From the NCBI GenBank assembly GCA_019637395.1, contig JAHBVR010000002.1:319495-383494 (forward strand): a stretch of DNA of 64,000 nt, in the 5' to 3' direction. This stretch comes from Vulcanimicrobiota bacterium (lineage in GTDB: Bacteria > Vulcanimicrobiota > Xenobia > Xenobiales > JADMJV01). A program made the translations under genes and the position numbers. The notes under the pieces were generated by a model. It did no database searches. It saw only the letters and a program-made list of their open reading frames with translations, and was not told where the DNA came from. Position 1 is the stretch's first letter. The number at the start of each line of letters is the position of its first letter. Below, piece after piece: positions 2,142 through 51,014 of the stretch.

Positions 2142-3920
2142 ATGAAAAGAATGCTGGTGGCCTTGTGCCTGAGCGCAGCCGCCTGGGCGGAGCCGGTGGA
2201 GCAAGCGGTCGGACCGCACCAGGCCTACTGGGACGATGAGAAGAGCAACGGGCTGATTCTGGTCAGCCTGGGCGGCACCAACAGCCGGCCCACGGACCTG
2301 GAGGCCTTCAACCGGCAGGCAGTGGAGTTGGGCTACAAGGTGCTGGCCCTGGCTTATCCCAACACCGTCATCTCGACCGCCTGTCGCGACAGCAAACAAC
2401 CGGATGCGTTCGACCGTTTTCGTGAATCGATCGTGGAAGGCAAGCCCACCAGCGAGCTGGTGGAGGTAGACCGGGCCAATTCCATCGAGGGCCGGCTACA
2501 GTCGGCTCTGACTCAGCTGCAATGGCCCCAAGACTGGTCCAAGATGGTGGTGGTCGGGCATTCGCAGGGCTCGGGGCACGCCGCCTACTTGGGTAAGCTC
2601 CACCGCCTGCGCGGGGTGATCATGCTGGCCGGCCCGCAGGACGATGGAGCCCGCTGGCTGTCTCGACCGGGTCAGACCGACCCCCTGAACTATGTGGGCT
2701 TTCTTCACGAAAAGGACTTTTTCGAGGTCAAACGCCAGGCTCGGGCCATCACCACCCTGCGCCAGGGCAAACTCAGCCCGCAATCTTTGATTATCAGCCG
2801 GGAAACGGTAGACGATCCCCACGTGTCCGTGATTCAACCGCAATTTCAAGAGGTCTGGCGCCAGTTGCTGGGACAGTTTCGGGTCGCCTGTCTCTCCCGC
2901 AAAGACACGGAGGAAGGCGGTTGGATCGAGCATCTCCAGGACAGCCAGCCTCACCTGGGACAGCGCGCGTTTTTACCCAGTCAGCAACAGAAGACGCCTG
3001 TTGTCGTCGAGTGTTTCACCACAGCCACGCCTCCCTCCAGCAGTTTGCTCTTGCACTACTGTGGGCCGCCACAGGCATCCGCAACCATGCCTCCGGTGGT
3101 GATCGTCCCCGGCGCCAAAGTCGATGCCACCTTCTATCAGGCGTTGGCCCGGACCCTGAAAGGTCAGGGACGTCACGTCTACACCCTGACCTTCGCCCAC
3201 AATCAGGACGACAATTACGTGCAGGCTCAGCAATTGGCCAATGCCATCGCGCGCGTGCGCCAGTTGAGTGAGGCGGCCGAAGTGGACCTGGTGGCCCACA
3301 GCAAGGGCTGCGTGGTAGCGACCGTCTACTGTACGCCCGAGTTCCGCCGGGACTGGATGACCGCTTACCAGGGCGACGTGCGCCGGCTTTTACTGGTGGG
3401 TGGGCCGAATGGCGGAATCGACTACTTCCATCGCCATCCGTTCGAGGACCAGGGAGCCAGCAACTGGCCCATGGTGTGGAAGCGCCTGGACGGGAAAGAC
3501 TGCAGCTCGTTTCAAATGGATCTGGCCGGATACTGGCCGGGACAGGCCCAGTTGGTGGCCCGTTGGGACGGCCGCTATCCGCCTCGAGACAAGGTCAGCT
3601 ACTATGGGGGAACGACGGAGCGTTTTGAAGCCGAAGGCATCGACGCCGCTGTGGAGGCGGGAGAGAATTTCATGGCGCGTTTACACGATACACCCATTGC
3701 GCCGACCATTCAGGTGGGCTTGCTGGCCGGCAATGTGGCCGACGTGCCCGGCTTCCGCAACGAGAAGGACGGAGCCAGCGACGGCATCATCCTGTTGGAC
3801 AGCGCCCTGCGCGCGCCTTACCGGGCCCATTTGGTCAAAAAAACCGTGTTGCCCTGTAATCATATCCAATTGATCTTGGGCAGCGAGGCCCAGGCTCAGA
3901 TCAGCGAGTTCCTACGTTGA
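2142..3920 (+). CDS. Secreted tandem alpha/beta-hydrolase (two lipase-like domains)
   Basis: A protein of 592 residues if begun at the ATG, which gives a clean signal peptide (MKRMLVALCLSAAAWA). It holds two consecutive alpha/beta-hydrolase units. The first has a nucleophile elbow GHSQGSGHA around residue 142 and a following VIMLAGPQDD strand. The second, after about residue 310, has VVIVPGAKVDATFYQ, then the elbow AHSKGCVVA around 388, typical of triacylglycerol lipase-like enzymes, and a late PCNHIQLILG that may carry the catalytic His. Fusion of two hydrolase folds in one exported chain is unusual. The last base of the stop codon is the first of the next ATG (sugar kinase), so the two are translationally coupled. 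The substrate is unknown; an ester or lipid is inferred. Confidence 0.7.
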   Translation: MKRMLVALCLSAAAWAEPVEQAVGPHQAYWDDEKSNGLILVSLGGTNSRPTDLEAFNRQAVELGYKVLALAYPNTVISTACRDSKQPDAFDRFRESIVEGKPTSELVEVDRANSIEGRLQSALTQLQWPQDWSKMVVVGHSQGSGHAAYLGKLHRLRGVIMLAGPQDDGARWLSRPGQTDPLNYVGFLHEKDFFEVKRQARAITTLRQGKLSPQSLIISRETVDDPHVSVIQPQFQEVWRQLLGQFRVACLSRKDTEEGGWIEHLQDSQPHLGQRAFLPSQQQKTPVVVECFTTATPPSSSLLLHYCGPPQASATMPPVVIVPGAKVDATFYQALARTLKGQGRHVYTLTFAHNQDDNYVQAQQLANAIARVRQLSEAAEVDLVAHSKGCVVATVYCTPEFRRDWMTAYQGDVRRLLLVGGPNGGIDYFHRHPFEDQGASNWPMVWKRLDGKDCSSFQMDLAGYWPGQAQLVARWDGRYPPRDKVSYYGGTTERFEAEGIDAAVEAGENFMARLHDTPIAPTIQVGLLAGNVADVPGFRNEKDGASDGIILLDSALRAPYRAHLVKKTVLPCNHIQLILGSEAQAQISEFLR

Positions 3921-5278
3921 TGCGCGTGGTGGGCGTCGACCTGGGGTCCACGGCCATCAAAGCCTGCCTCTGGGAACTGCAGCCCGGCCGGAGCCCTGTC
4001 CCCATCCAACGGGCCAGCCGCGAACTGCACCTGCAAGTAGCCCAACCCGGCTGGGCGGTGCAGGACCCCCAGGCCACGCTCCAGGCGGTCCGTGAGCTGC
4101 TGACGGAAATGCCCGACTACCAGGCGCTGGGGTTCTCCTCGGCCATGCACAGTCTCTTGCCGCTCTGCGAAAGCGGGCAACCGGCGGGGATGGCCATTTC
4201 CTGGGCGGACCAGCGCTCCTGGGCCGAAGCCGAACGTTTGCGCAAAGAAGAGCCGCACTGGGCTGAGCTAAGCGGTACCCCGCTGCATCCCATGGCCTGG
4301 CCGGCGAAACTGCTGTGGTGGCGCCGGCACGAGCCCGCTCCCGCCGCCTGGGTGGGGCTCAAAGAGTGGGTGGTGTCGCAACTGGCCGGCTTGCCTCGGC
4401 CGCCCTGGATGGACCGCTCCCTGGCCAGCGCCACCGGCCTTTACGCCACCAGCGATTGGTCGCCGGAACTGCTGCAGAAATGCGGGGTGGATCGCGCTCA
4501 GTTGCCGCGGGTCATCGAACCGGATCAGCCATTGCCGGAGTTCCCTGTCAAAACCGTGCTGGGAGCCGGTGACGGTCCTTTGAGTCACCTGGGCACCGGC
4601 ACCGTCCGGTCCGATCAGGCCTGCCTTTCTATCGGAACCTCTGGGGCTTTACGTATGGTTTGCGGCGCCGGCGCCGCTACCGAGGGAGGCAAGCTCTTCC
4701 GCTATTATCTTGCGAAAGACCGGTGGGTACGTGGAGGCGCGATTTCCAACGGTAGTTTGGTACTCGATTGGGCGCGTGGCCTGCAAGGCCTGTCGCCCGA
4801 GGCACTCCTGGAGAATGTGGCTAAAATCCCGGCGGGTTCTGAGGGATTGGTGGCGCTTCCTTACCTGATGGGGGAGCGTTCGCCTATCTGGGACGCCCGT
4901 GCTCGGGGAGCTATGGTGGGATTGAGCGTGGAACACACCCAGGCTCACATCGCCAGGGCCATGCTCGAGGGCGTGGTTTTTGCTTTGCGCCAGGTTGCGG
5001 AGTCTTTGCCGGGAGCCTCCGAAATCCGTGTCACCGGAGGCCTGAGCCGTTCACCGGTGTGGCTGCAGATATTGGCGGACGGTCTGGCCCGGCCGGTGTT
5101 GGCCATGGCCGAAGGGGAAGCGGGAGCATTGGGGGCCGCCCAACTGGCTGCCGGCTTTGAAGTGGAGCCCGAGATCCTGACCCGCTACGAGCCGCTGAAT
5201 CCGGCGGCCTATGAGCGCCCCTATGCGATCTACCGCCAGCTCTACCCCGCCCTGCGCCAGGTCATGCACGCCCCCTAA
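3920..5278 (+). CDS. FGGY-family carbohydrate kinase, probably gluconokinase-like
   Basis: A 452-residue cytoplasmic sugar kinase of the FGGY family (actin-like ATPase fold). The phosphate-1 motif GVDLGSTAIKA is at the N-terminus, the conserved block GAGDGPLSHLGTG lies near 215, SIGTSGALRMV near 236, and the signature YLMGERSPIWD near 314 is characteristic of gluconokinases. RVTGGLSRSPVWLQILADGL near 373 is the adenosine-binding block. It starts at ATG 3920, overlapping the hydrolase stop by one base (TGATG), and overlaps the convergent lipoprotein gene at its 3' end by 4 nt. Gluconate is the best guess from the GERSP signature; xylulose or another sugar cannot be excluded, and no other sugar-catabolism gene is adjacent. 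Confidence 0.8.
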   Translation: MRVVGVDLGSTAIKACLWELQPGRSPVPIQRASRELHLQVAQPGWAVQDPQATLQAVRELLTEMPDYQALGFSSAMHSLLPLCESGQPAGMAISWADQRSWAEAERLRKEEPHWAELSGTPLHPMAWPAKLLWWRRHEPAPAAWVGLKEWVVSQLAGLPRPPWMDRSLASATGLYATSDWSPELLQKCGVDRAQLPRVIEPDQPLPEFPVKTVLGAGDGPLSHLGTGTVRSDQACLSIGTSGALRMVCGAGAATEGGKLFRYYLAKDRWVRGGAISNGSLVLDWARGLQGLSPEALLENVAKIPAGSEGLVALPYLMGERSPIWDARARGAMVGLSVEHTQAHIARAMLEGVVFALRQVAESLPGASEIRVTGGLSRSPVWLQILADGLARPVLAMAEGEAGALGAAQLAAGFEVEPEILTRYEPLNPAAYERPYAIYRQLYPALRQVMHAP

Positions 5279-6452: not shown

Positions 6453-6521
6453 ATGAGTGACGCAATGAAAATTCAGAATTTCCCCAAACTGCCGCCCAAG
6501 CGGCTGGCTATCAATAACTGA
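6453..6521 (+). CDS. Possible 22-residue leader peptide (MSDAMKIQ...)
   Basis: A short open frame MSDAMKIQNFPKLPPKRLAINN fills the gap between the DUF4142-like lipoprotein and the propeller-like protein. Its TGA overlaps the ATG of the next gene (TGATG), the arrangement used for translational coupling. The peptide is basic and proline-containing. No ribosome site is evident, so it may be a chance frame; a second in-frame ATG (MKIQNF) exists four codons later. Confidence 0.25.
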   Translation: MSDAMKIQNFPKLPPKRLAINN

Positions 6522-7222
6522 TGGGAATGCTCTGGCTGACCCTGTTGCTACTCGGTCAGCTTTTTGCCGTGGACCAGCCCGCCTATCTGGGGTTGGACGG
6601 CGGAGTCTATGGCCCCAACCTGAAGCGCATAGGCTTGGGAAGCGGCACCAGTCTGGCCATTCACGGTCAGACCGCTTACCTGGTGGGCAGTGACGGTCGG
6701 GTGTGGAGTGCCGGCGGCTCCGACTGGAGGCCTCTGGAGGGCGCTCCGGCTCTTGCCCAGGCCCAGAAAGTGGTGGTGGAGCCATCTGGTGCTCTGGTGA
6801 TTCTGGGCACGGATTCCGGCATTTACCGGCTGCGTCGCAACTGGTATCGGATTGGTTTGGCCAGCGCCCGGGACCTGGACGTTTCGCCTGCGGGCGACCT
6901 GTTCATCGTGGGCAGTGACGCCCACGTGTGGACATCGGCGGCCGGTCAAACTGAGTGGAGGCTCTACAACGCCCTGGCGGCCGGCAAAAAGCTGGCCGCC
7001 GCTCAGGGAATGGTCTATTTAATCGGCACGGACAACGGCGTTTATCGTATCACGCCGGAGCAAATCGAGCGCCAGGGACTGGCTACGGCTCAAGAGATAT
7101 CCGTGAGCAGCTCGGGCCAGGTGGCTATTGTCGGCATGGATAATGGGGTCTACTATCTGCAGAGCGGCGATTGGAAGCGTCAGGGCGGCGGCACCGCCCG
7201 GCTGGTCATCTGGCCGCGCTGA
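6521..7222 (+). CDS. Secreted beta-propeller-like repeat protein (tectonin-like)
   Basis: A 233-residue protein with an N-terminal signal peptide (LWLTLLLLGQLFAV). The rest is made of about five repeats of roughly 40 residues, each containing a pattern like GxDxGVY or GSDxxVW: YLVGSDGRVWSA, VILGTDSGIYRL, LFIVGSDAHVWTS, VYLIGTDNGVYRI and VAIVGMDNGVYYL. This periodicity fits tectonin/tachylectin-type propellers, whose known members bind carbohydrate or protein ligands outside the cell. The start could be ATG 6521 or 6527. The function is unknown; an extracytoplasmic binding role is inferred. Confidence 0.65.
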   Translation: MGMLWLTLLLLGQLFAVDQPAYLGLDGGVYGPNLKRIGLGSGTSLAIHGQTAYLVGSDGRVWSAGGSDWRPLEGAPALAQAQKVVVEPSGALVILGTDSGIYRLRRNWYRIGLASARDLDVSPAGDLFIVGSDAHVWTSAAGQTEWRLYNALAAGKKLAAAQGMVYLIGTDNGVYRITPEQIERQGLATAQEISVSSSGQVAIVGMDNGVYYLQSGDWKRQGGGTARLVIWPR

Positions 7223-7303: not shown

Positions 7304-8674
7304 GTGGTCATTGCCTCCGTTCCGCCGCGTTCTCCGCGCCAGGCGCCGCCTCCGCCTCCGCCCCAGGAGGAATCGTTCTGGAAAGAATTTGACCATGATG
7401 TGCGCGAGTTCTTGCTGCACGCCGATCCCGATAAATTTCGTGAGTTCGGGCAATTGGTCAAGACCATCGGCAACGCGGTGCGGGGCGTGTGGAAGATCGT
7501 CGACCCGCAGGACATCGTCCAGGATGACCCCAAGTGGGCCTCCATCAGCGATACCGTCGGGGTGGCGGCGGGATTGACGGCGGCCGGGGGGGCAGCCGTA
7601 CTGGGCATCACCAAGTTGGTGCGGGGCTTCCGGGCCGGGCATACCGGCAAAAAGCTGGATGGCCTGGTCGACCTGGGGGCGGCCACTACCCTGACGCTGG
7701 CCGCCCTGACCCTGGGCACGGCCAAGTTGGTGGCCGCTCCTCTCACGGCTACCTTGAATGCGGTTCGCGGTGGCTACAATGTAATTCGAGGCTTCAAACA
7801 GAACGACGAGCGCAAACAACTGCAAGGACTTCTCGATATCAGCCGCTCCCTGGGTGGTTTCTCCCGGAGCTTCAAGCGTTTCAGTCCTATCCTCGGGGTG
7901 GCCGGCATTGTTTTAGCGCCGGTGGCGGGCTTGTTGCAGACCGGACGCGGAGTCCACGACCTTTCCATCGGCCTTAAAAATGACGATAAGAAACGTATGG
8001 TGCGCGGCCTGGCCGACATGGCCACGGCGGTCGGCACCACCATGGCTTTTGCCAGCGGAGTGGCGGTGGTCCCGGGCGTGGTTTTGGCGGTGGCGGCCAA
8101 CGTCTTGAAAGGCGCCTATCAGGTGTCTCCCCGTTTTCGCGGCTGGGTGAACCAGAAGCTGGATAAGCACGAGGCCAGGCTGGAAAAGTTTGTGCACGGC
8201 GCTGACAAGGTCACCAAACCGTTCGTAAAGGCTTGGCGCAGGTTGCTCGACAACTTCTTCCCGGGAGACGCCTGGACTACGCCGCCCCACTACAGCCAGG
8301 CGCAACTATCGGAAATCACCGCACTCTTACAGGTGGATGGCGAATACACCCCGGAAGAGCGGGAGTGCTACAAGGCGGCCCTGGAGGATACCGGTCAAGC
8401 CAGGGAAACCCCTCCCCTGAACACCCCTCCTGTGGCGCCCCGGCGGGCGGAGTTGCTCAAGGAACTGAAATCTCCCCAGCAACGCCGTAACTTTTTGCAT
8501 TTCATGATCAGCGTGGCCGACTATGATACCCGTACCGTAGCGACGGAAAAGGACTATTTACGCCGGCTCAGCCAGGATCTGGGACTTCGCGAAAAGGACT
8601 TCGACATGATGCTTAAGGATTATCTCCACGAAAAGCTTATAAAGGCAGGTCTAAGGAAGCCCGGTCGTTCATAA
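7304..8674 (+). CDS. Repeat-containing membrane-associated protein with TerB-like C-terminal domain
   Basis: A 456-residue protein with GTG start. After a Pro-rich head (9-20) comes a Gly/Ala-rich region (about 85-270) with hydrophobic stretches long enough to enter a membrane. It contains three copies of one unit: VRGFRAGHTGKKLDGLVDLG (106-125), IRGFKQNDERKQLQGLLDIS (161-180) and IGLKNDDKKRMVRGLADM (222-239), spaced 55-60 residues. The C-terminal part (330-440) has two acidic helix pairs, LLQVDGEYTPEEREC and ISVADYDTRTVATEKDYLRR, that look like TerB/DUF533 metal-binding-type helices; this is my inference. A similar unit occurs in the 239-residue protein at 23.0 kb. Its last 38 nt overlap the convergent VIT/vWA gene. 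The function is unknown. Confidence 0.65.
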   Translation: MVIASVPPRSPRQAPPPPPPQEESFWKEFDHDVREFLLHADPDKFREFGQLVKTIGNAVRGVWKIVDPQDIVQDDPKWASISDTVGVAAGLTAAGGAAVLGITKLVRGFRAGHTGKKLDGLVDLGAATTLTLAALTLGTAKLVAAPLTATLNAVRGGYNVIRGFKQNDERKQLQGLLDISRSLGGFSRSFKRFSPILGVAGIVLAPVAGLLQTGRGVHDLSIGLKNDDKKRMVRGLADMATAVGTTMAFASGVAVVPGVVLAVAANVLKGAYQVSPRFRGWVNQKLDKHEARLEKFVHGADKVTKPFVKAWRRLLDNFFPGDAWTTPPHYSQAQLSEITALLQVDGEYTPEERECYKAALEDTGQARETPPLNTPPVAPRRAELLKELKSPQQRRNFLHFMISVADYDTRTVATEKDYLRRLSQDLGLREKDFDMMLKDYLHEKLIKAGLRKPGRS

Positions 8675-11441
8675 CCAGGTAGGGTTTTTCGGCAAAGCGC
8701 AGGCCACCGTGTCCATCGTGCTCTATGACTTCCACTTTGCCCATGCCGTAACCCATAGGTCCTCTCGCAGAATATTGCACTGATAGTTGGGCCCCTCGAG
8801 CTTGGCCCGGCACCACGAAGCACTCCGGACCGTAGCCGGTGGTCACGTTGGCCAGCAGACGTCCTTTGCGACCGGCTTCTTTGACGGTCAAATTGACATC
8901 GTTGGAATCGGTTTCCCAGGTGAGTACGAAGCGTGTGCTGGCCTGGTCATCCAGAGTCAGTCCGAGTTTGTTCAGCTCGCGCTGAATCTGGTCGCGCCGG
9001 CCCGGCTCATGAGCCGCCCAGGCGGCTCCGACCAGAGCCAGATCTCCCCGCAGCACTTGATCGAAACCGGCGAAGCGTCCCCAGGGGTAGTGGCGGCGCA
9101 AGCCTTTTTGCAGCCGCTCGAAAGCTTCCTGGTAATTGCCCAGACGCAGTTGGGCGAAGGCCACCAAACGATGGCTGCTGGGATGGTCGGGGCGCGAAAT
9201 CATGGCTTTGGTGTAGGTGTCGGCGGCCAGTTCGTTTTCTCCCAGCGATTCCAGGCAGCCGCCGGCGTAACGCCGCATGTCGGCTCGACCCGGGAAGAGA
9301 TCAATGATCGATCCGTAGGCGCGGGCCGCTTCCTCCTTTTCTCCGGCCGCCTCCAGAGCGTGGGCGTAAGCCACCAGGGCCAGTACGTTGGTGGGGTCTT
9401 TCTGGAGCCAGGCCAGCGCGCGCGGCCTGGCGTCCTGGCCATCCTTGAGCAAGCGCTCGATTTGTGCGAACTCTCCGCTGAGGGCGGGACGATTGGCGTT
9501 ATGTTCGGTGAGGAAGCTCTCCATCGAATCGCGCCTCGGCCTGGGGCTTGGGGCCCGGCCCGGCGGGGCGACGTTGGCTTCCGCATCCAGCAGTCCGTCG
9601 GCTTCGCTAAAAGAGACGGCTTTTCGGGCTGGTTCGGGTAGCGGAGCGGCTGCCTGGCTGGGACCGGGAGCGGCCTCGTAACGAGCTGCCGGGCTCTTGT
9701 CGAAACGTTGCTCCAGGTCCAGATTTGGGTCGGGCTGCCAGGGCTGAGCGCGTCTCCGCCGTATGGCCACGCCATAGTTGCTCTCCCGTTTTTCCAGGGT
9801 CAATCCGTTGGGGCCCATCACCATGATGTCAGCCAGGCCCTTACGTTGCAGGCCAAAGCGGGCATAATCGTAGTCGCTTTCCAGCACCAGCAGGGCGGTG
9901 TAGTCGCTGACCACGCGAAAACGCGTGGACAGGTCCACGATTTGCGCGCGCAATCGGTTCTTTTGCTGCTCATCACGACAATCGCGGCACTCGCGGGTCA
10001 GCCTGGCGATGCGCGCTCCGGCCGCGGCTCTTTCCAAAAGGGGCCAGGCCACTTCGGTGAGGGGAATTTCGCTCTGGTCCAGCACCGGTCCCGACAGAGA
10101 AACCTTCAGGCTTCGGGCCGGTTCATTCAACTCCGCGAAAACCAGCTGCTCCTGCCCGGGCCGCAGTCCGTTCAGAGTTTGCGGCCAAACCCAGGCGGCG
10201 TTTTCCACCTCCACGGCCACTCCCGACAGCGCTTTATGCGTCAGCGCTTCAGCTACTTTGTCAGCCGGCTCCCGAGCGTCGATCACCAGCCCACCCATGG
10301 CGTCGGCCAGGGGGCGCAGCGTTTCCTGGTTGCGCACACTGCCGCCGGCCAGCAGGTCGACCCGGGTGATGCCGGCCTGGCGCAGCTTGGGTAGAAAGTC
10401 GCTAAGGCGCTCGTGGCCCGCCGTAATCACCCCGTCACCCACCAGCAACACCCGCGAGAATCCCTTTTGCTCCTCGGCCCAGTGCAGCGCTTTGTTCCAA
10501 TTGGTGGCGCCCATCGGCAGGCGCGCCTGCAGTTCTTTCAAGTCCTGCATCGGCTTGACCGTCTGATCGAAGGCGGCCAGTCGCACCTCCGTGCCTTTCA
10601 GTTGTTCCAGCACGGCCTGGAGCTGGCTGAGCTGTTCCTGGTAATGGGGGCCGGCTGACGCGCTGGTGTCGACCAGCACCAGCAATTTGTCGACGGGCAC
10701 CGGCTGGCTTTCCAGCTTGGGCTTGACCGAGAACATCACCAGATTGTCCTTGATCAGCCCTTCCGCCGGCGCCTGCCGCTGAACCACGAAATCCTCCGTT
10801 GGAATCCGGTCCTGTAGTTTCATCTCCTGGCCCCGGTCGGTGCGCTGCGGCCCCTGCCAGACCTGGGCGCTGGCCGAAAGTTCGTGCACTTTGGGCAGGC
10901 CCTGCAAGGGCAGGCGGTAGGACTCACCCGCGCCCAATTGTTGAGAATAGGAGATGACGATTTCCTTGCTGGCCTGCCCCAAGATAGGAAAAATGCGCGC
11001 TTGAAAGCGGTTGCCCGCGGATTGCTCCAGAAGGGCCGGGTCCTGCCTGACATGGAGGGCGTCTTCGTAGGCCACGCGGGCTCGTTGGGTTTCTACCACC
11101 TCGCCCTCTTTCCAGGCCCCATCCGGGTCGCGCATGGCCAGGCGACTGATGGCCGCTCCCTCAGGCAGAGTGATTTCAAAGCGCCCCTCCAGCGTGCGCT
11201 GCTGAGGATTGTTGAAGGTCAGGTGCAGTTCGCTGAAGGCCAGCGGTCCCTGGATCATCGCCTTGGATTCGAGCTTGACCAGTTCCAGGCCGGTGCCGTC
11301 GTTGGCAGTCAGCTTCATGGGGGTCTCGGGAGGTTTGGGGGCTACGGCCTGCACCGCGGTATTGGATGTGAGAGCCTGAGGAATGGATGCCTGAGCGGCA
11401 CAACCGCACAGAAGCAAAGCAGCCAGCAGAGTGTGTTTCAC
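8637..11441 (-). CDS. VIT/von Willebrand factor A/TPR/DUF2135 protein
   Basis: GTG start chosen because AAGGAGG stands 5 nt upstream; this gives 934 residues beginning VKHTLLAALLLCGCAAQ, a signal peptide with a possible lipobox at Cys14. Order: VIT domain (about 35-165; LEGRFEITLPEGAAISRL, then YEDAL and FPILGQ), a von Willebrand A domain (about 250-420) with a MIDAS-type DTSAS, a long linker, TPR-like helices (about 660-780; ALAWLQKDPTNVLALVAYAH), and a C-terminal beta domain that resembles DUF2135 (VNLTVKEAGRKG, TTGYGPECF). Bacterial VIT-vWA proteins are exported and are presumed to bind proteins through the metal site. The role here is unknown. The convergent gene overlaps its 3' end. Confidence 0.8.
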   Translation of the reverse strand: MKHTLLAALLLCGCAAQASIPQALTSNTAVQAVAPKPPETPMKLTANDGTGLELVKLESKAMIQGPLAFSELHLTFNNPQQRTLEGRFEITLPEGAAISRLAMRDPDGAWKEGEVVETQRARVAYEDALHVRQDPALLEQSAGNRFQARIFPILGQASKEIVISYSQQLGAGESYRLPLQGLPKVHELSASAQVWQGPQRTDRGQEMKLQDRIPTEDFVVQRQAPAEGLIKDNLVMFSVKPKLESQPVPVDKLLVLVDTSASAGPHYQEQLSQLQAVLEQLKGTEVRLAAFDQTVKPMQDLKELQARLPMGATNWNKALHWAEEQKGFSRVLLVGDGVITAGHERLSDFLPKLRQAGITRVDLLAGGSVRNQETLRPLADAMGGLVIDAREPADKVAEALTHKALSGVAVEVENAAWVWPQTLNGLRPGQEQLVFAELNEPARSLKVSLSGPVLDQSEIPLTEVAWPLLERAAAGARIARLTRECRDCRDEQQKNRLRAQIVDLSTRFRVVSDYTALLVLESDYDYARFGLQRKGLADIMVMGPNGLTLEKRESNYGVAIRRRRAQPWQPDPNLDLEQRFDKSPAARYEAAPGPSQAAAPLPEPARKAVSFSEADGLLDAEANVAPPGRAPSPRPRRDSMESFLTEHNANRPALSGEFAQIERLLKDGQDARPRALAWLQKDPTNVLALVAYAHALEAAGEKEEAARAYGSIIDLFPGRADMRRYAGGCLESLGENELAADTYTKAMISRPDHPSSHRLVAFAQLRLGNYQEAFERLQKGLRRHYPWGRFAGFDQVLRGDLALVGAAWAAHEPGRRDQIQRELNKLGLTLDDQASTRFVLTWETDSNDVNLTVKEAGRKGRLLANVTTGYGPECFVVPGQARGAQLSVQYSARGPMGYGMGKVEVIEHDGHGGLRFAEKPYLVMNDRASLDLPL

Positions 11442-11497
11442 GGAAACCTCCTTGAATTGAAGAATGGGGACGTCGCCGAAAGGGAGCGGATCTTCCC

Positions 11498-12010
11498 ATG
11501 ACAAAATTCGCGGGCATGCAGTTGAATTTGACCTCACTACAGGCGCCCTGGCCGGTCGGCACGGTGCTCATCGCCTGTGCGGGAGAGACGATTGTGGCCG
11601 TGGATTTCACTCTGGAGCGCCTTGCCAGACTTTTGAGCAAGCGCTTTGGGAGGGTCGAGTTCGCTCCCTCTCGACTCTACGCGCCTGAATTGCAGGCCTA
11701 TCTGGACGGCTCTCTGACCGCCCTGCAGAGTTTGCCGGCCGAGGCCGGAGGCACCGAGTTTCAACGACGAGTGTGGCATCGTTTGCGGGAGATCCCGCCG
11801 GGACAGACTCGGACTTACAGCCAGGTGGCTGAAAGCATCGGGCAGCCGCGCGCGGCGCGTGCGGTGGGCCTGGCCAATTCCCTGAATCCGCTGAGTTTGA
11901 TCGTCCCCTGCCACCGCCTGATCGGACGCTCCGGCAGCCTGACAGGCTATGCGGGAGGCCTGGAGTGCAAGCGCTGGTTGTTGAAGCACGAGTCTGGAGG
12001 GCCTTGCTGA
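11498..12010 (+). CDS. ogt: Methylated-DNA--protein-cysteine S-methyltransferase
   Basis: A 170-residue suicide DNA-repair protein that transfers the O6-alkyl group of guanine to its own cysteine. The active site IVPCHRLIG is complete (Cys near residue 137), preceded by the helix-turn-helix wing TYSQVAESIGQPRAARAVG, in which the arginine finger (AARAVG) is conserved, and followed by GYAGGLECKRWLL. The length matches the stand-alone Ogt class without an Ada domain. The stop TGA shares one base with the ATG of the next gene (TGATG), so ogt and the TPR protein are coupled. The N-terminal domain is short and divergent, as usual. Confidence 0.92.
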   Translation: MTKFAGMQLNLTSLQAPWPVGTVLIACAGETIVAVDFTLERLARLLSKRFGRVEFAPSRLYAPELQAYLDGSLTALQSLPAEAGGTEFQRRVWHRLREIPPGQTRTYSQVAESIGQPRAARAVGLANSLNPLSLIVPCHRLIGRSGSLTGYAGGLECKRWLLKHESGGPC

Positions 12011-13188
12011 TGTCCAGGTTGCTCGGGTTAGGAGAGGGAGCGCGGGACCTGGCGGGTCTGCTGAGCCTGTGCGCCGAGGGACCGGTGGCCTGGCATGTTT
12101 TGGAAGGGTTGATCAGCGATTTTTGGGATGACTGCCAGGTGCTGGTCGAGGCCGGCCTGGTGGAAGCCCCTTCTCGGGGTGGGCCGGTGCGCTTGCTGGC
12201 ACGCCAGGAAACACGGAAGCTCTCTCTGCGCGGCGCCCGCGGCCGCAAGTTACAGGGCCGGTTTATTGCTTATCTTTTGGAGCAGTGCCGGCGGGTTCCG
12301 AGCCTGGGCGGCTTGCGCGAGAGCGCTTACTGGCTGGACCTGATCCCCCAACTGGAGGAACTGGCCGGACCGCTGCTGGCGGCCGTTCCTTCCGCTGAGC
12401 TGGGTTGGCCGTTTGTGGCTTTGAGCCGTCTCAGTGAAGCTCAGGGAGACCGGCCTCGCGCCGCCTTCTGGTCGGCTCGCGCGGTAGCCGTCTTGCAGGC
12501 GCGGTTGGGTCCGGAACATTTAGATACGGCCACGGCCTACAATAATCTGGCGGCCGCTTACCATCAGTCGGGGCATTACCCGCAATCCGAGGAACTTTAC
12601 CGGTATGCTCTGCAAGTTCGCGAAAAGCAGTTGGGGCCGGAACATCCCTACCTGGTGACCGTGCTCACCAACCTGGCCGGTGCCTGCCGCAATCAGGGAA
12701 AATTACAATCGAGTCTGGACTATCTGCTACGAGCGGCCGAGATTGTCGGAATGGAGCGCCCCGAGTCGCTGCCCTTGATGATGCAGCTGGCCGAAACTTA
12801 TCTGCGCGCCGAGCAAATGGAGCTGGCCGCCTCGGTCTGCCGGCGAGCTCTGGCACTGGTTGAAAAGGATGACCCCAATCGAAGTTTTATACTCCAGAGC
12901 CTGGCTTCGGTGGTGCATAAATCCGGTCAGAAATCGGCCGGCCATAGCTGGATGGGGGAGGCCGTGGAATTGCAAAGAAAGTTCTTTGGCAGTCAACATC
13001 CGGCCCTGGCCACCACCTTGAACAATTGGGGAGTACTGTGCTATCTCGACGGGGACCTGGAGCGCTCGCGGCAGTTGCTCGGGGAAGCACTGGAAATTCG
13101 GCGCCACGCTCTGGGAGCGAGCAATCCGGAAACGCAGGCCACCGCGGCCAATTTACAGGCGGTCAGCACCCCCCAGGAGCTACGTTGA
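12010..13188 (+). CDS. TPR protein with kinesin-light-chain-type repeats
   Basis: A 392-residue protein begun at the ATG overlapping the ogt stop. Residues 1-100 look like a small helical or winged-helix-like domain (ARDLAGLLSLCAEGPVAW, CQVLVEAGLVEAPSRGG). From about 130 on there are 42-residue repeats of the kinesin-light-chain/NB-ARC-associated kind: TAYNNLAAAYHQSGHYPQSE, VTVLTNLAGACRNQGKL, TTLNNWGVLCYLDGDLERSR, each followed by a helix with the LEIRRHALG or LQVREKQLG pattern. Such repeats form protein-binding superhelices. No NTPase motif is present, so it may be an adaptor. The link to DNA alkylation repair is only positional. Confidence 0.75.
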   Translation: MSRLLGLGEGARDLAGLLSLCAEGPVAWHVLEGLISDFWDDCQVLVEAGLVEAPSRGGPVRLLARQETRKLSLRGARGRKLQGRFIAYLLEQCRRVPSLGGLRESAYWLDLIPQLEELAGPLLAAVPSAELGWPFVALSRLSEAQGDRPRAAFWSARAVAVLQARLGPEHLDTATAYNNLAAAYHQSGHYPQSEELYRYALQVREKQLGPEHPYLVTVLTNLAGACRNQGKLQSSLDYLLRAAEIVGMERPESLPLMMQLAETYLRAEQMELAASVCRRALALVEKDDPNRSFILQSLASVVHKSGQKSAGHSWMGEAVELQRKFFGSQHPALATTLNNWGVLCYLDGDLERSRQLLGEALEIRRHALGASNPETQATAANLQAVSTPQELR

Positions 13189-23015: not shown

Positions 23016-23735
23016 CTACTTTTGCGGCGGCATGCCTGAATCACCGGCGCTACGGCGGTTGAAATACTGCAGGCCACGATAGGAGTAGGACACGATGTCG
23101 CCGGCAAAGCCGACGGCTAACAGTTTGTCGGCGTAGGGAGCGAGGGGCGGGAAAACCATAGGGGCGACGGCGCCCACCAGGCCCACCACGTCGCAGGCCA
23201 CGTGAGTGGCGTCCATTCCCTTGTCCAGCCAGCTGGCATCGGGATTTTTGAAGGTTTTGATGGTACGCGCTCCGTCGAGGGCCAGGGCGGCACCGCGGAC
23301 GAAGGGGATAAAGGCTTTATCGGCAATGGTTTGCAGTTCGCTGGGGATTCCATTGTATACCTGGGTCTTTACCACGGTGGCGGCGTTGCGCAACATAAAG
23401 GCCGGGTCATTGTCGACTACGGTGGAGACCTCTTCGGTGACCGAGCGCACACCCGAACGGAAGCCGCCAATCACTTTCTCGGCGATGGTCGGGCCTTCGC
23501 TGGTGATGCTCACCAGTGGGCGGCCGTCCACGTTGATGCTCACTTTGTCGCCGCGGCCGACGCGGCGCATGGCTTCTTTGGTGAACTCGGGGTTGCTGAC
23601 GATGCTCTCGAGCAACTGGTCCCGCAATTTTTCGCTGTCCGGCTGGTTTTGCGGCGGCGGAGGCGTGGGCGGTTGAGTGGGTTTGGAAGGGGGCAGGCTA
23701 CGCGGGCCCTGGGGGTTTTGTGATTGCAGCTTCAT
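23016..23735 (-). CDS. Hypothetical protein with Pro-rich N-terminus and membrane-like segments
   Basis: Start at MKLQSQNPQ (239 aa), with GGGAG about 10 nt upstream. The first 35 residues are Pro/Gln-rich. A helical-basic middle (EKLRDQLLESIVSNPEFTKE) is followed by hydrophobic segments near 165-210 (DVVGLVGAVAPMVFPPLAP) and a second at 205-225. The stretch ARTIKTFKNPDASWLDKGMD resembles the RGF-x-n-GLxD unit in the 456-residue protein at 7.3 kb, suggesting they belong to one family. No signal peptide. A membrane-associated role is inferred; no function is assigned. A terminator follows the stop. Confidence 0.55.
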   Translation of the reverse strand: MKLQSQNPQGPRSLPPSKPTQPPTPPPPQNQPDSEKLRDQLLESIVSNPEFTKEAMRRVGRGDKVSINVDGRPLVSITSEGPTIAEKVIGGFRSGVRSVTEEVSTVVDNDPAFMLRNAATVVKTQVYNGIPSELQTIADKAFIPFVRGAALALDGARTIKTFKNPDASWLDKGMDATHVACDVVGLVGAVAPMVFPPLAPYADKLLAVGFAGDIVSYSYRGLQYFNRRSAGDSGMPPQK

Positions 23736-48902: not shown

Positions 48903-51014
48903 ATGTCTACGAGTCCCATCAATCCCAATGTCGCGGGTGTCACCCCGCAAACCAATCGCAACACGGCGAAAGCGCCAGCTGTCGATAAACAGGAAGCGAA
49001 CCCTCAGGACATGGTGCAGGTCGGCCAACAGCCGCCTCAGCAACTGGCCGCCGATGACACTTCGGTCATTACGATGCGCGTCAAGGTGAAGAACTCTCTC
49101 CTCGAACCCGACGCCGATGGTAAGTCTAAACTGGATGACCTGGAACCAGATTTCGTTCCCAAAGGCACCGCCAGCGCCAATGCACCCACCTTCATCACCG
49201 CTCTGGCCGACCCCAGCCAGGTACCCGAGGGTTTTACCCCCGTTTCGACGGTGGCTCTGGTTCCCAGCGAGCAGGCCAAGGATCTGGACGCTCTCAACCG
49301 CGACTACTTCGCGGCCTTCGTGCCTCAGGGCGGCTATGCCGTGTCACAGCAGCAGATTGACGAATATGGCAAAGAGCACGAGCAGGCCGGATTCCAGAAG
49401 GGCCTCAGCGAGGGTCTTGAAAAAGGCGCCAAGAATGCTGTGCCTCCCGGCTATCAGGCCAAGCTGATGGATTCCGAGGCCGGTCTGAAAATTGAAGCCA
49501 AACGCGACCAGTTCTCCAACCTGCTCGGCATGATCGGCTCCACTTCCGGTGCTCTGGGCATCTCCGCCGGTATCGGGATTCCCTCTCAATACGCGGCCCC
49601 CCTGGCTTTGGCCGCCGCTCCTCTGCAGATTTTCGGACCGGCCGGAACGCTCAGCACCATGGCCAAGCTGGAGCACCAGAAGGCGGCTCTGTTGGAGAGC
49701 GTCAAAGCCGAGAACCCCGACAAAGACCCGCTGAAGGTGGCGGTGGATATGAATCCCCACACCCAGATGCCCATCACCACCGAAGAAGCGATGCGCAACA
49801 TCGACCTGATGAAGAAGTCGCAGAAGATGAAGACCATCGGCAGCGCTCTCTTGATCGGTGCCGGCGTGGCCGCTCTGGGCGGCTGGGGCACGGCCGCCAC
49901 CGCGCTGGCCGTCGGTTCGCTGGCCAGCCCGCTGGCCGACACCATTCCGACCTTCGACAAAATCGGTCAGGTGCATGACCGCAAGAAAGATCTGAAAGCT
50001 CAGTTGGAAGCCCGCATCCAGGAAGGCGTGGCCGCCGGCCTGAGCAAAGAAGAAGCCGAAGTCAAGGCACGCGCCTCCACCGTTGAAGCTCAGGTTCCCA
50101 TTCTCAACGAAGCCGGCCAGCCGGTGGGCTTCGAAGCTCGGCAGATTCCCATCTCCGAAGCGCTTGATCATGTGGGCAAACAGCAAAAGATGCTGGCTCT
50201 GGGAGCCATCGGCGCCGTCGCTCAGGCGGGCAGCCTGGTGGCAATGGGTCTCGGTTGCCCCATCATGATGGTGGTCGGCGCCAGCGTGGCTCTCCCGCTG
50301 CTGGCTCGCGGCGCCCTCTTCCCCAGCGAGACCTGGCAGACGCTTAAAGCCCTGCCCGGCAAGATTTGGGAGGGCATCAAGGCGGTGGGCCAGGCCATCG
50401 GCCGCAAGCTGGGCCTGGTCAAAGGACCGAAAGGCGGCGATGAGGCTCAGCCGATGTCCGATTCGCAGAAGGCTCTCTTCAAAACGATGGCCGACATCAG
50501 CGAAGCCGATCCGAAGCTGGCTGAAGGCCTCAAGAACACTCTCGAAGCCCTGCACCGTCCGCCCACCAACGAGGCCGAGCAGAAGGCGGCTATCGCGGCC
50601 GGCAAGGAGCACGAAGCCCAATTGGCTCAGTTGAAGGCGGAGCATCCGGAACTGGCCGCCCGCTTTGAAGCCAATATGAGGGAGCTGATCAGCGAAGGCG
50701 CCCAGCAAGCCGAAGAGGCCCAGATGGAAGCCATGCACGATCAGGTCGAGAACGTGGTCAACTCCAAGTTTGGTCAGGCGCTGCTGGCCGCTCCCGGCGT
50801 CCAAGCTGCCCTTAAGGCGGTTGGCGGTGACAAGGAGTATGGCGAGAGTGTCGTGCGTATGATGGCTCAGGCCCAGATCTTCGGCAACGACGATGTCTAC
50901 CAGAGTCTGCTGCAGAGCGAGGCCACCGACAAGGATTCGGCCAACATGCTCAAAGTTTACCGCGCGCTCGAAGCCGAAATCTCCAAACAACAACCCAACC
51001 AGCCTGCGGCTTAG
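48903..51014 (+). CDS. Hypothetical 703-residue protein with hydrophobic core segments
   Basis: A protein of unknown family. Residues 1-200 are hydrophilic and disordered-looking (APAVDKQEANPQD), then four hydrophobic segments near 215-265, 315-350, 430-475 are Gly/Ala-rich (GIGIPSQYAAPLALAAAP; GSALLIGAGVAALGGWGTAA; AVAQAGSLVAMGLGCP). The C-terminal 230 residues are helical and acidic (AEQKAAIAAGKEHEAQLAQ). The layout, with paired hydrophobic stretches between soluble ends and no signal peptide, resembles secreted translocator-type proteins, but this is only a shape. It has a strong promoter, ribosome site and terminator, so it is probably abundant. It may be a relative of the Gly/Ala-rich protein at 7.3 kb. 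Confidence 0.65.
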   Translation: MSTSPINPNVAGVTPQTNRNTAKAPAVDKQEANPQDMVQVGQQPPQQLAADDTSVITMRVKVKNSLLEPDADGKSKLDDLEPDFVPKGTASANAPTFITALADPSQVPEGFTPVSTVALVPSEQAKDLDALNRDYFAAFVPQGGYAVSQQQIDEYGKEHEQAGFQKGLSEGLEKGAKNAVPPGYQAKLMDSEAGLKIEAKRDQFSNLLGMIGSTSGALGISAGIGIPSQYAAPLALAAAPLQIFGPAGTLSTMAKLEHQKAALLESVKAENPDKDPLKVAVDMNPHTQMPITTEEAMRNIDLMKKSQKMKTIGSALLIGAGVAALGGWGTAATALAVGSLASPLADTIPTFDKIGQVHDRKKDLKAQLEARIQEGVAAGLSKEEAEVKARASTVEAQVPILNEAGQPVGFEARQIPISEALDHVGKQQKMLALGAIGAVAQAGSLVAMGLGCPIMMVVGASVALPLLARGALFPSETWQTLKALPGKIWEGIKAVGQAIGRKLGLVKGPKGGDEAQPMSDSQKALFKTMADISEADPKLAEGLKNTLEALHRPPTNEAEQKAAIAAGKEHEAQLAQLKAEHPELAARFEANMRELISEGAQQAEEAQMEAMHDQVENVVNSKFGQALLAAPGVQAALKAVGGDKEYGESVVRMMAQAQIFGNDDVYQSLLQSEATDKDSANMLKVYRALEAEISKQQPNQPAA

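What the first reader, a model, noticed from the sequence alone, without database searches (positions are those of the whole stretch)
7304..8674. A three-copy RGF-x-n-GLxD unit that also appears in another protein
The 456-residue protein contains VRGFRAGHTGKKLDGLVDLG, IRGFKQNDERKQLQGLLDIS and IGLKNDDKKRMVRGLADM at regular spacing, each before a Gly/Ala-rich hydrophobic stretch. The 239-residue protein at 23.0-23.7 kb has a similar stretch (ARTIKTFKNPDASWLDKGMD) before its hydrophobic region. The 703-residue protein at 48.9 kb shares the Gly/Ala-rich layout. This hints at an undescribed membrane-associated family, and at least two members are followed by strong terminators.
Basis: partly seen in the sequence, partly recalled or inferred. 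Interest (0 to 1): 0.55.

Follow-up and report, generated by a model that had tools for sequence, protein, structure and literature searches.

The report
Three-hairpin membrane module with TerB tail
An uncultured Eremiobacterota bacterium makes a protein built from three copies of a glycine-rich helical hairpin; the same hairpin turns up, attached to different enzyme domains, in one branch of this phylum and matches no family in the libraries searched, so it may be a new membrane-attachment part.

Summary
The repeat is real. The 456-aa ORF at 7304-8674 holds three related units (spacing 55 and 60 residues). Each unit's profile scores the other two above shuffled sequence (five of six comparisons for the window protein itself). 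All 19 long homologues found show three units. The hairpin region has no significant match in Pfam, NCBIfam, PHROGs, PADLOC or PDB sequences; only the C-terminus is known (TerB-like).

An iterated profile of the unit finds the hairpin in 28 of 149 genomes of the phylum. All 28 are among the 32 genomes of families f1-f13; none of the other 117 has a match. Single hairpins also occur fused to clostripain-type peptidases, a phosphodiesterase-type domain and CpeT.

What they appear to share is a proline/serine-rich, non-Sec head. Only one of the three genes has a strong terminator.

Best reading: a new hairpin module, most likely membrane-associated (marginal hydrophobicity, charged turns), here carrying a TerB-like tail. 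Export by a flagellar-type type III machine is possible but unproven: the genome has such genes and no detectable flagellin.

The parts
7304..8674 (+). 456-aa ORF, GTG start; clear orthologues in two of the four other same-genus genomes searched: G004 (L006, 88%; L033, 90%) and G002 (L007, 69%; L032, 68%)
7304..7372 (+). Pro-rich head, residues 1-23 (MVIASVPPRSPRQAPPPPPPQEE); low model confidence, no Sec-type hydrophobic core by eye
   Evidence: sequence; AF2 pLDDT 38-44
7373..7498 (+). two predicted helices, residues 24-65, before the hairpins
   Evidence: pLDDT under 50
7565..7714 (+). hairpin unit 1, residues 88-137, turn GFRAGHTGKK
7730..7882 (+). hairpin unit 2, residues 143-193, turn GFKQNDERKQ
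7910..8062 (+). hairpin unit 3, residues 203-253, turn GLKNDDKKRM; best-modelled unit (block pLDDT 61-87)
8069..8257 (+). conserved VPG-led helix and following long helix, residues 256-318
8297..8644 (+). TerB-like C-terminal domain, residues about 332-447 (Pfam match 384-435)
   Evidence: Pfam PF05099 27.4 bits vs cut-off 24.4; Foldseek 2ou3 prob 1.0, E 0.023; 2h5n Z 6.2, 99 residues aligned over 326-443, rmsd 4.4
6521..7222 (+). upstream beta-propeller/tectonin-like gene; neighbour kept in L033 (G004), not found in L032, where homologues of the window genes at 708-1043, 3917-5278 and 11965-13188 lie nearby instead

Best explanation
The protein is a multidomain member of an undescribed, clade-restricted family: a Pro-rich head, a helical cap, three tandem Gly/Ala-rich alpha-hairpins and, seen only in this orthologue group, a TerB-like tail. 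Each unit is a hydrophobic helix (roughly GxxxGxxxIxxGIK), a short charged turn (xxDKKxx) and a second hydrophobic helix (roughly GxLDIxxAxG), closed by a small-residue or Pro apex; all three charged turns would therefore lie on one side. Shown: repeat homology, conservation, fusion of the same hairpin to unrelated domains, a TerB-like tail. Inferred: the hairpins insert into or pack on a lipid bilayer with the basic turns on one face, and hold the attached domain (TerB here; peptidase or other enzyme elsewhere) at the membrane. Weaker inference: these proteins leave the cytoplasm by a flagellar-type type III machine, because their heads are non-Sec and Pro/Ser-rich like those of many other odd proteins of the genome.
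For: Repeat reality. Three units in each of the 19 long homologues, which include all 16 aligned ones or a record of the same gene. 52 ORF rows with the module at domain E of 0.01 or less among 4598 held ORFs (one row is a fragment of another), against 0 hits at E of 0.1 or less in three sets of locally shuffled decoys (the ORF set is enriched, because many loci were fetched for their hits). Fusions, of 10 module proteins scanned: Peptidase_C11 (L158, E 1.2e-29; L090, E 6.8e-18), Phosphodiest (L076, 24.1 bits vs cut-off 23), CpeT (L081, E 1.4e-33). A Peptidase_C11 gene lies directly upstream of (L038) or one gene away from (L036) a three-hairpin gene in 2 of 4 loci that share the same downstream neighbour; not seen in the other two (L053, L040). 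Clade restriction: 28 of 149 genomes, all within G000-G031. AF2 puts hairpins in the same places in two runs. Turn net charges +4, +2, +2.
Against: AF2 confidence is low (mean pLDDT 61 and 54), so the fold is provisional. Hydrophobicity is marginal: L003 has no 19-residue peak at or above 1.6. Apex 2 of the window protein is itself charged +2, which blurs a positive-inside argument. Nothing shows export: in the start-pattern test an [ILV] at position 3 was found in 6 of 8 module proteins against 24 of 107 others, only 8 of 29 module ORFs having a usable start and related proteins being counted separately. FHIPEP occurs in 138 of 149 genomes, most of them without the module, so co-occurrence says nothing.
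Confidence: 0.5

Rival explanations
1. An ordinary cytoplasmic-side inner-membrane protein: the hairpins anchor a TerB-like stress or metal-response domain, and no secretion is involved.
For: TerB-like tail over the Pfam cut-off and supported by fold comparison. The own genome also has a stand-alone ORF of about 138 aa that matches the tail (L005, E 1.9e-4). A membrane-linked TerB-like domain is known from DjlA (recalled).
Against: Most homologues have no TerB tail: 2 of 16 aligned members match TerB. The Pro-rich head is kept in tail-less paralogues and is unusual for an inner-membrane protein (judgement).
Confidence: 0.3
2. A soluble helical-repeat scaffold whose Gly/Ala helices pack on each other, not on lipid.
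For: Marginal hydrophobicity, no peak in L003. VIA rows mix membrane proteins with soluble helical proteins at similar Z of 5-7. Weak, non-significant resemblance of the module profile to designed Gly/Ile coiled coils (best E 0.1).
Against: Best 19-residue mean at or above 2.0 in 8 of 16 homologues.
Confidence: 0.15
3. Low-complexity convergence: Gly/Ala-rich helices look alike and the wider module family is an artefact of iteration.
For: Iterated profiles of small-residue helices can drift; the decoys keep only local composition (judgement on the design).
Against: 0 decoy hits at E of 0.1 or less in three sets; 0 of 117 genomes of f14-f16 hit by the same profile at E of 0.001 or less; no PDB sequence below E 0.1 among 177635.
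Confidence: 0.05

Closest known systems
TerB family (PF05099, COG3793)
   Same: C-terminal part matches by sequence (over cut-off) and resembles TerB structures
   Different: The hairpin region and head have no counterpart; the Pfam match covers only profile positions 64-115 of 118
DjlA (membrane-anchored co-chaperone with a TerB-like part; recalled)
   Same: membrane part plus TerB-like domain in one chain
   Different: NCBIfam PRK09430 scores 11.7 bits, E 0.14, against a cut-off of 162; no DnaJ match at E of 1 or less; three hairpins
Hydrophobic translocator-type or membrane-acting effectors of type III systems (recalled as a kind)
   Same: non-Sec, disordered-looking head and moderately hydrophobic hairpins
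   Different: No Pfam match to any such family at E of 1 or less in the 16 members; no secretion evidence; no chaperone gene looked for

Membership tests
TerB (PF05099) | profile score over Pfam gathering cut-off | tested here: met
   27.4 bits vs 24.4, residues 384-435
TerB (PF05099) | whole TerB fold | tested here: inconclusive
   Foldseek 2ou3 prob 1.0 but E 0.023; 2ou3 Z 7.5 rmsd 6.1 and 2h5n Z 6.2 rmsd 4.4
Described families of Pfam, NCBIfam, PHROGs, PADLOC | significant profile match to the hairpin region | tested here: not met
   window protein: best off-tail match PHROG 794 (tape measure) at E 0.035; over 16 members only TerB is below E 0.01 in Pfam
DjlA | score over NCBIfam cut-off; J domain | tested here: not met
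   11.7 vs 162 bits; no DnaJ match
Type III secreted substrate | export that depends on the type III gate | not testable with these tools
   needs an assay; FHIPEP and YscJ_FliF genes present in G000
Integral membrane protein | transmembrane helices | tested here: inconclusive
   0-3 KD19 peaks at or above 1.6 per homologue
Family of the 23-kb protein (A3) or of the 703-aa protein | profile homology to the repeat | tested here: not met

The most novel reading that the evidence does not exclude
The f1-f13 side of the Eremiobacterota uses flagellin-less, flagellar-type export machines to send out a large set of proteins that share a modular head: M-x-[ILV] start, Pro/Ser-rich stretch and sometimes a D-x-[VI]-x-[ILV]-[GSRN] motif. 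The three-hairpin protein and the hairpin-enzyme fusions would be its membrane-acting substrates. Support: FliF- and FlhA-type genes and rod-like genes without a flagellin match in G000; such heads on peptidases, an adenylate kinase and others; the motif in 16 of 99 proteins with a disordered-looking head against 15 of 512 others and a shuffle expectation of 1.4. The 16 fall into about 8 families by my count, so the test is weaker than its numbers; the 456-aa protein's own head lacks the motif.
Probability: 0.25. Interest if true: 0.8.

Novelty: new variant of a known kind. Interest (0 to 1): 0.48.

Why it matters
A recurring domain that the profile libraries searched do not hold, joined to enzymes of different classes and confined, within the phylum searched, to one branch of mostly uncultured bacteria, gives a handle for finding a set of unannotated, possibly exported proteins. 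If the export reading holds, it would make the question of what flagellin-less flagellar-type machines secrete directly testable in these bacteria.

Tried and rejected
Homology of the 23-kb and 703-aa proteins to the repeat: rejected. Both have relatives of their own: the 23-kb protein in 10 of 18 class genomes, the 703-aa protein in 5 of 18, all of the same genus.

Start-codon choice by Shine-Dalgarno scoring gave obviously internal starts and was dropped (which also stopped on an error). An unambiguous-start filter was used instead and left 8 of 29 module ORFs and 107 of 456 others.

Co-occurrence of module and FHIPEP: uninformative, FHIPEP in 138 of 149 genomes.

Fold searches: no Foldseek match at E of 0.001 or less. 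Apart from TerB chains the VIA rows are generic helical proteins and rhodopsins at Z of 6.5 or less, plus one chain of an SRP-receptor complex at Z 9.0 over 162 residues, rmsd 4.5; by the tool's own note this is no evidence for a helical model of this confidence. The second model, without the tail, was less confident and was not searched.

Plasmids, phages, viral contigs: no relative found. The genome-collection search, which is pattern-based, gave 11 loci whose titles name Candidatus Eremiobacterota, UBP9, SZAS-1 (EREM-KAN) or only 'bacterium'; they appear to be the records behind G loci already seen. All 12 genome searches were confined to this phylum, so relatives in other phyla are not excluded.

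Literature: searches (25 of 60 papers listed). No title or abstract start shown describes this family or a type III system of this class. PMC10469934 and PMC9758169 were read in found passages only; all others were seen as listings.

Full report
What is there. The ORF at 7304-8674 (+) is open over 456 codons from a GTG and has a coding-like GC3 of 0.73. An in-frame stop lies just before the GTG, and the next start codons are well inside; the same holds for the orthologue L032, which supports the start.

The repeat. I cut the three units out of an alignment of 16 homologues, built one HMM for each and scored them against each other. Cross-unit medians were 10.3 to 31.1 bits, against a best shuffled score of 8.7 to 12.4 in 1600 shuffles per comparison and at most 4.8 for reversed sequences. 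In the window protein the U2 profile against U1 (9.4 bits) is the one comparison of six that does not beat the best shuffle; the closest median is U1 against U2 (10.3 against 8.9). With the iterated profile 19 long homologues each show three units. Invariant columns are mostly Gly and Pro: G90, G101, P146, R155, A208, G216, G223, G235, A242, G244, G252, P257, G258.

The family. In its own genome the protein has three long paralogues without the tail, L002 (32% identity), L003 (28%) and L004 (32% over part), and a separate TerB-only ORF, L005. Searching with the single sequence, 6 of 6 genomes of the family and 10 of 18 of the class have a match at E of 0.001 or less, its own genome included. 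Some matches are to the TerB part alone (L005, L015, L020, L023); for G016 that is the only one, so hairpin matches are in 9 of 18. With the 16-row profile, 21 of 149 phylum genomes match, many weakly and over one unit only. The TerB tail together with hairpins was seen in the window protein and L007 among 16 members; L006 ends at its contig end. Paralogues lie in different neighbourhoods, for example next to mutS-like and yebC-like genes for L003 (recognised by eye).

The module beyond the family. A profile of single units (A4) hits 17 of 18 class genomes at E of 0.01 or less; 12 of the 13 own-genome hits are the units of the four three-unit proteins. Iterating the profile over 4598 held ORFs gave 52 ORF rows at domain E of 0.01 or less (one a fragment of another) and no hit in three sets of window-shuffled decoys at E of 0.1 or less. 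That ORF set is enriched for hits. Pfam on 10 module proteins: Peptidase_C11 in two, Phosphodiest in one (just over cut-off), CpeT in one, sub-threshold metallopeptidase matches in two, nothing within E 0.01 in four. The two metallopeptidase-like carriers, L153 and L082, are among the weakest module members (domain E 0.0012 and 0.00091), and L083, scanned with them, is not in the list. A broader profile (A6, 42 units) over the phylum hits 28 of 149 genomes at E of 0.001 or less: 28 of the 32 of families f1-f13 (missing G011, G018, G021, G023) and none of the 117 of f14-f16 (family labels).

Why not the other two proteins. The unit HMM gives low, negative or no scores on those 13 proteins, never above the best of 100 shuffles. 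The 703-aa protein gives 0.3%. By eye they share with the 456-aa protein a Pro/Ser/Gln-rich head.

Structure. AF2 with 16 sequences gives mean pLDDT 61 and helices 79-111, 114-134, 138-165, 169-189, 195-225, 229-250 with breaks at the three turns; the third unit is the most confident. A second run on 320 residues with 19 sequences gives nearly the same helices at pLDDT 54. The tail resembles TerB structures. Hydropathy is marginal: 0 to 3 peaks, best means 1.58 to 2.32.

Export idea. Own genome: two full FHIPEP genes, one nearly full in one frame, and 14 loci that match only the C-terminal half of the profile; two YscJ_FliF genes; a run of genes that looks like flgB, flgC, fliE, fliF, fliG, fliH, fliI, fliJ and on to flhB and flhA (by eye except fliF and flhA); hook/rod-type Pfam domains; no flagellin match (completeness 97.9%). 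The first cultivated member of the phylum was reported to show no flagella and to lack a flagellin gene (PMC9758169, passage). Motif D-x-[VI]-x-[ILV]-[GSRN] within residues 16-110: 16 of 99 proteins with a disordered-looking head (my cut-offs) and 15 of 512 others; its density is 0.84 per 1000 positions at residues 21-60 and 0.22-0.49 elsewhere. The 16 include two C11 peptidases, five relatives of the 23-kb protein and four of the 703-aa protein, so about 8 families. That the motif resembles one in FlgM is recalled, not tested. None of this shows that the 456-aa protein is exported.

Judgement. The repeat and the family are real and absent from the libraries searched; membrane association is the likeliest role; export is an open, testable idea.

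Noticed in passing
G000 loci L026, L028-L031 and others; L050:7826-8890 and 8895-9971: 14 loci that match only the C-terminal half of FlhA/SctV (FHIPEP) besides two full genes; two in tandem begin with signal-peptide-like sequences (by eye), which would place a gate domain outside the cytoplasm.
   Followed up: partly
L195, L043 (G000:C34), L196 (G000:C23): Flagellar-type export gene run and a second FliF-type gene elsewhere, but no flagellin match in the genome.
   Followed up: partly
L196:4319-5095 (+): Adenylate kinase (PF00406, E 5.6e-51, from residue 77) with a long Pro/Ala-rich N-terminal head that contains DDIQIS.
   Followed up: partly
window 23019-23735 (-): Member of its own family (10 of 18 class genomes, several copies in many), no Pfam match, Pro-rich head, strong terminator behind it.
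   Followed up: partly
window 48903-51011 (+): 703-aa protein found in 5 of 18 class genomes, all same genus; head with a DMVQVG motif of a kind also seen in unrelated proteins.
   Followed up: partly
L036:3318-4562, L038:2652-3902: Clostripain-type peptidase genes with the same kind of head beside or near a three-hairpin gene; elsewhere peptidase and hairpin are fused (L158, L090).
   Followed up: partly
L061:4719-6038 (+): Hook/rod D1-domain protein (PF22692, E 1.3e-14) with a signal-peptide-like start (by eye), within about 3 kb of a FHIPEP C-terminal-half locus.
   Followed up: no
window 8637-11537 (-): VIT/VWA/TPR protein whose gene converges on the 456-aa gene and overlaps it by 38 bp.
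   Followed up: no
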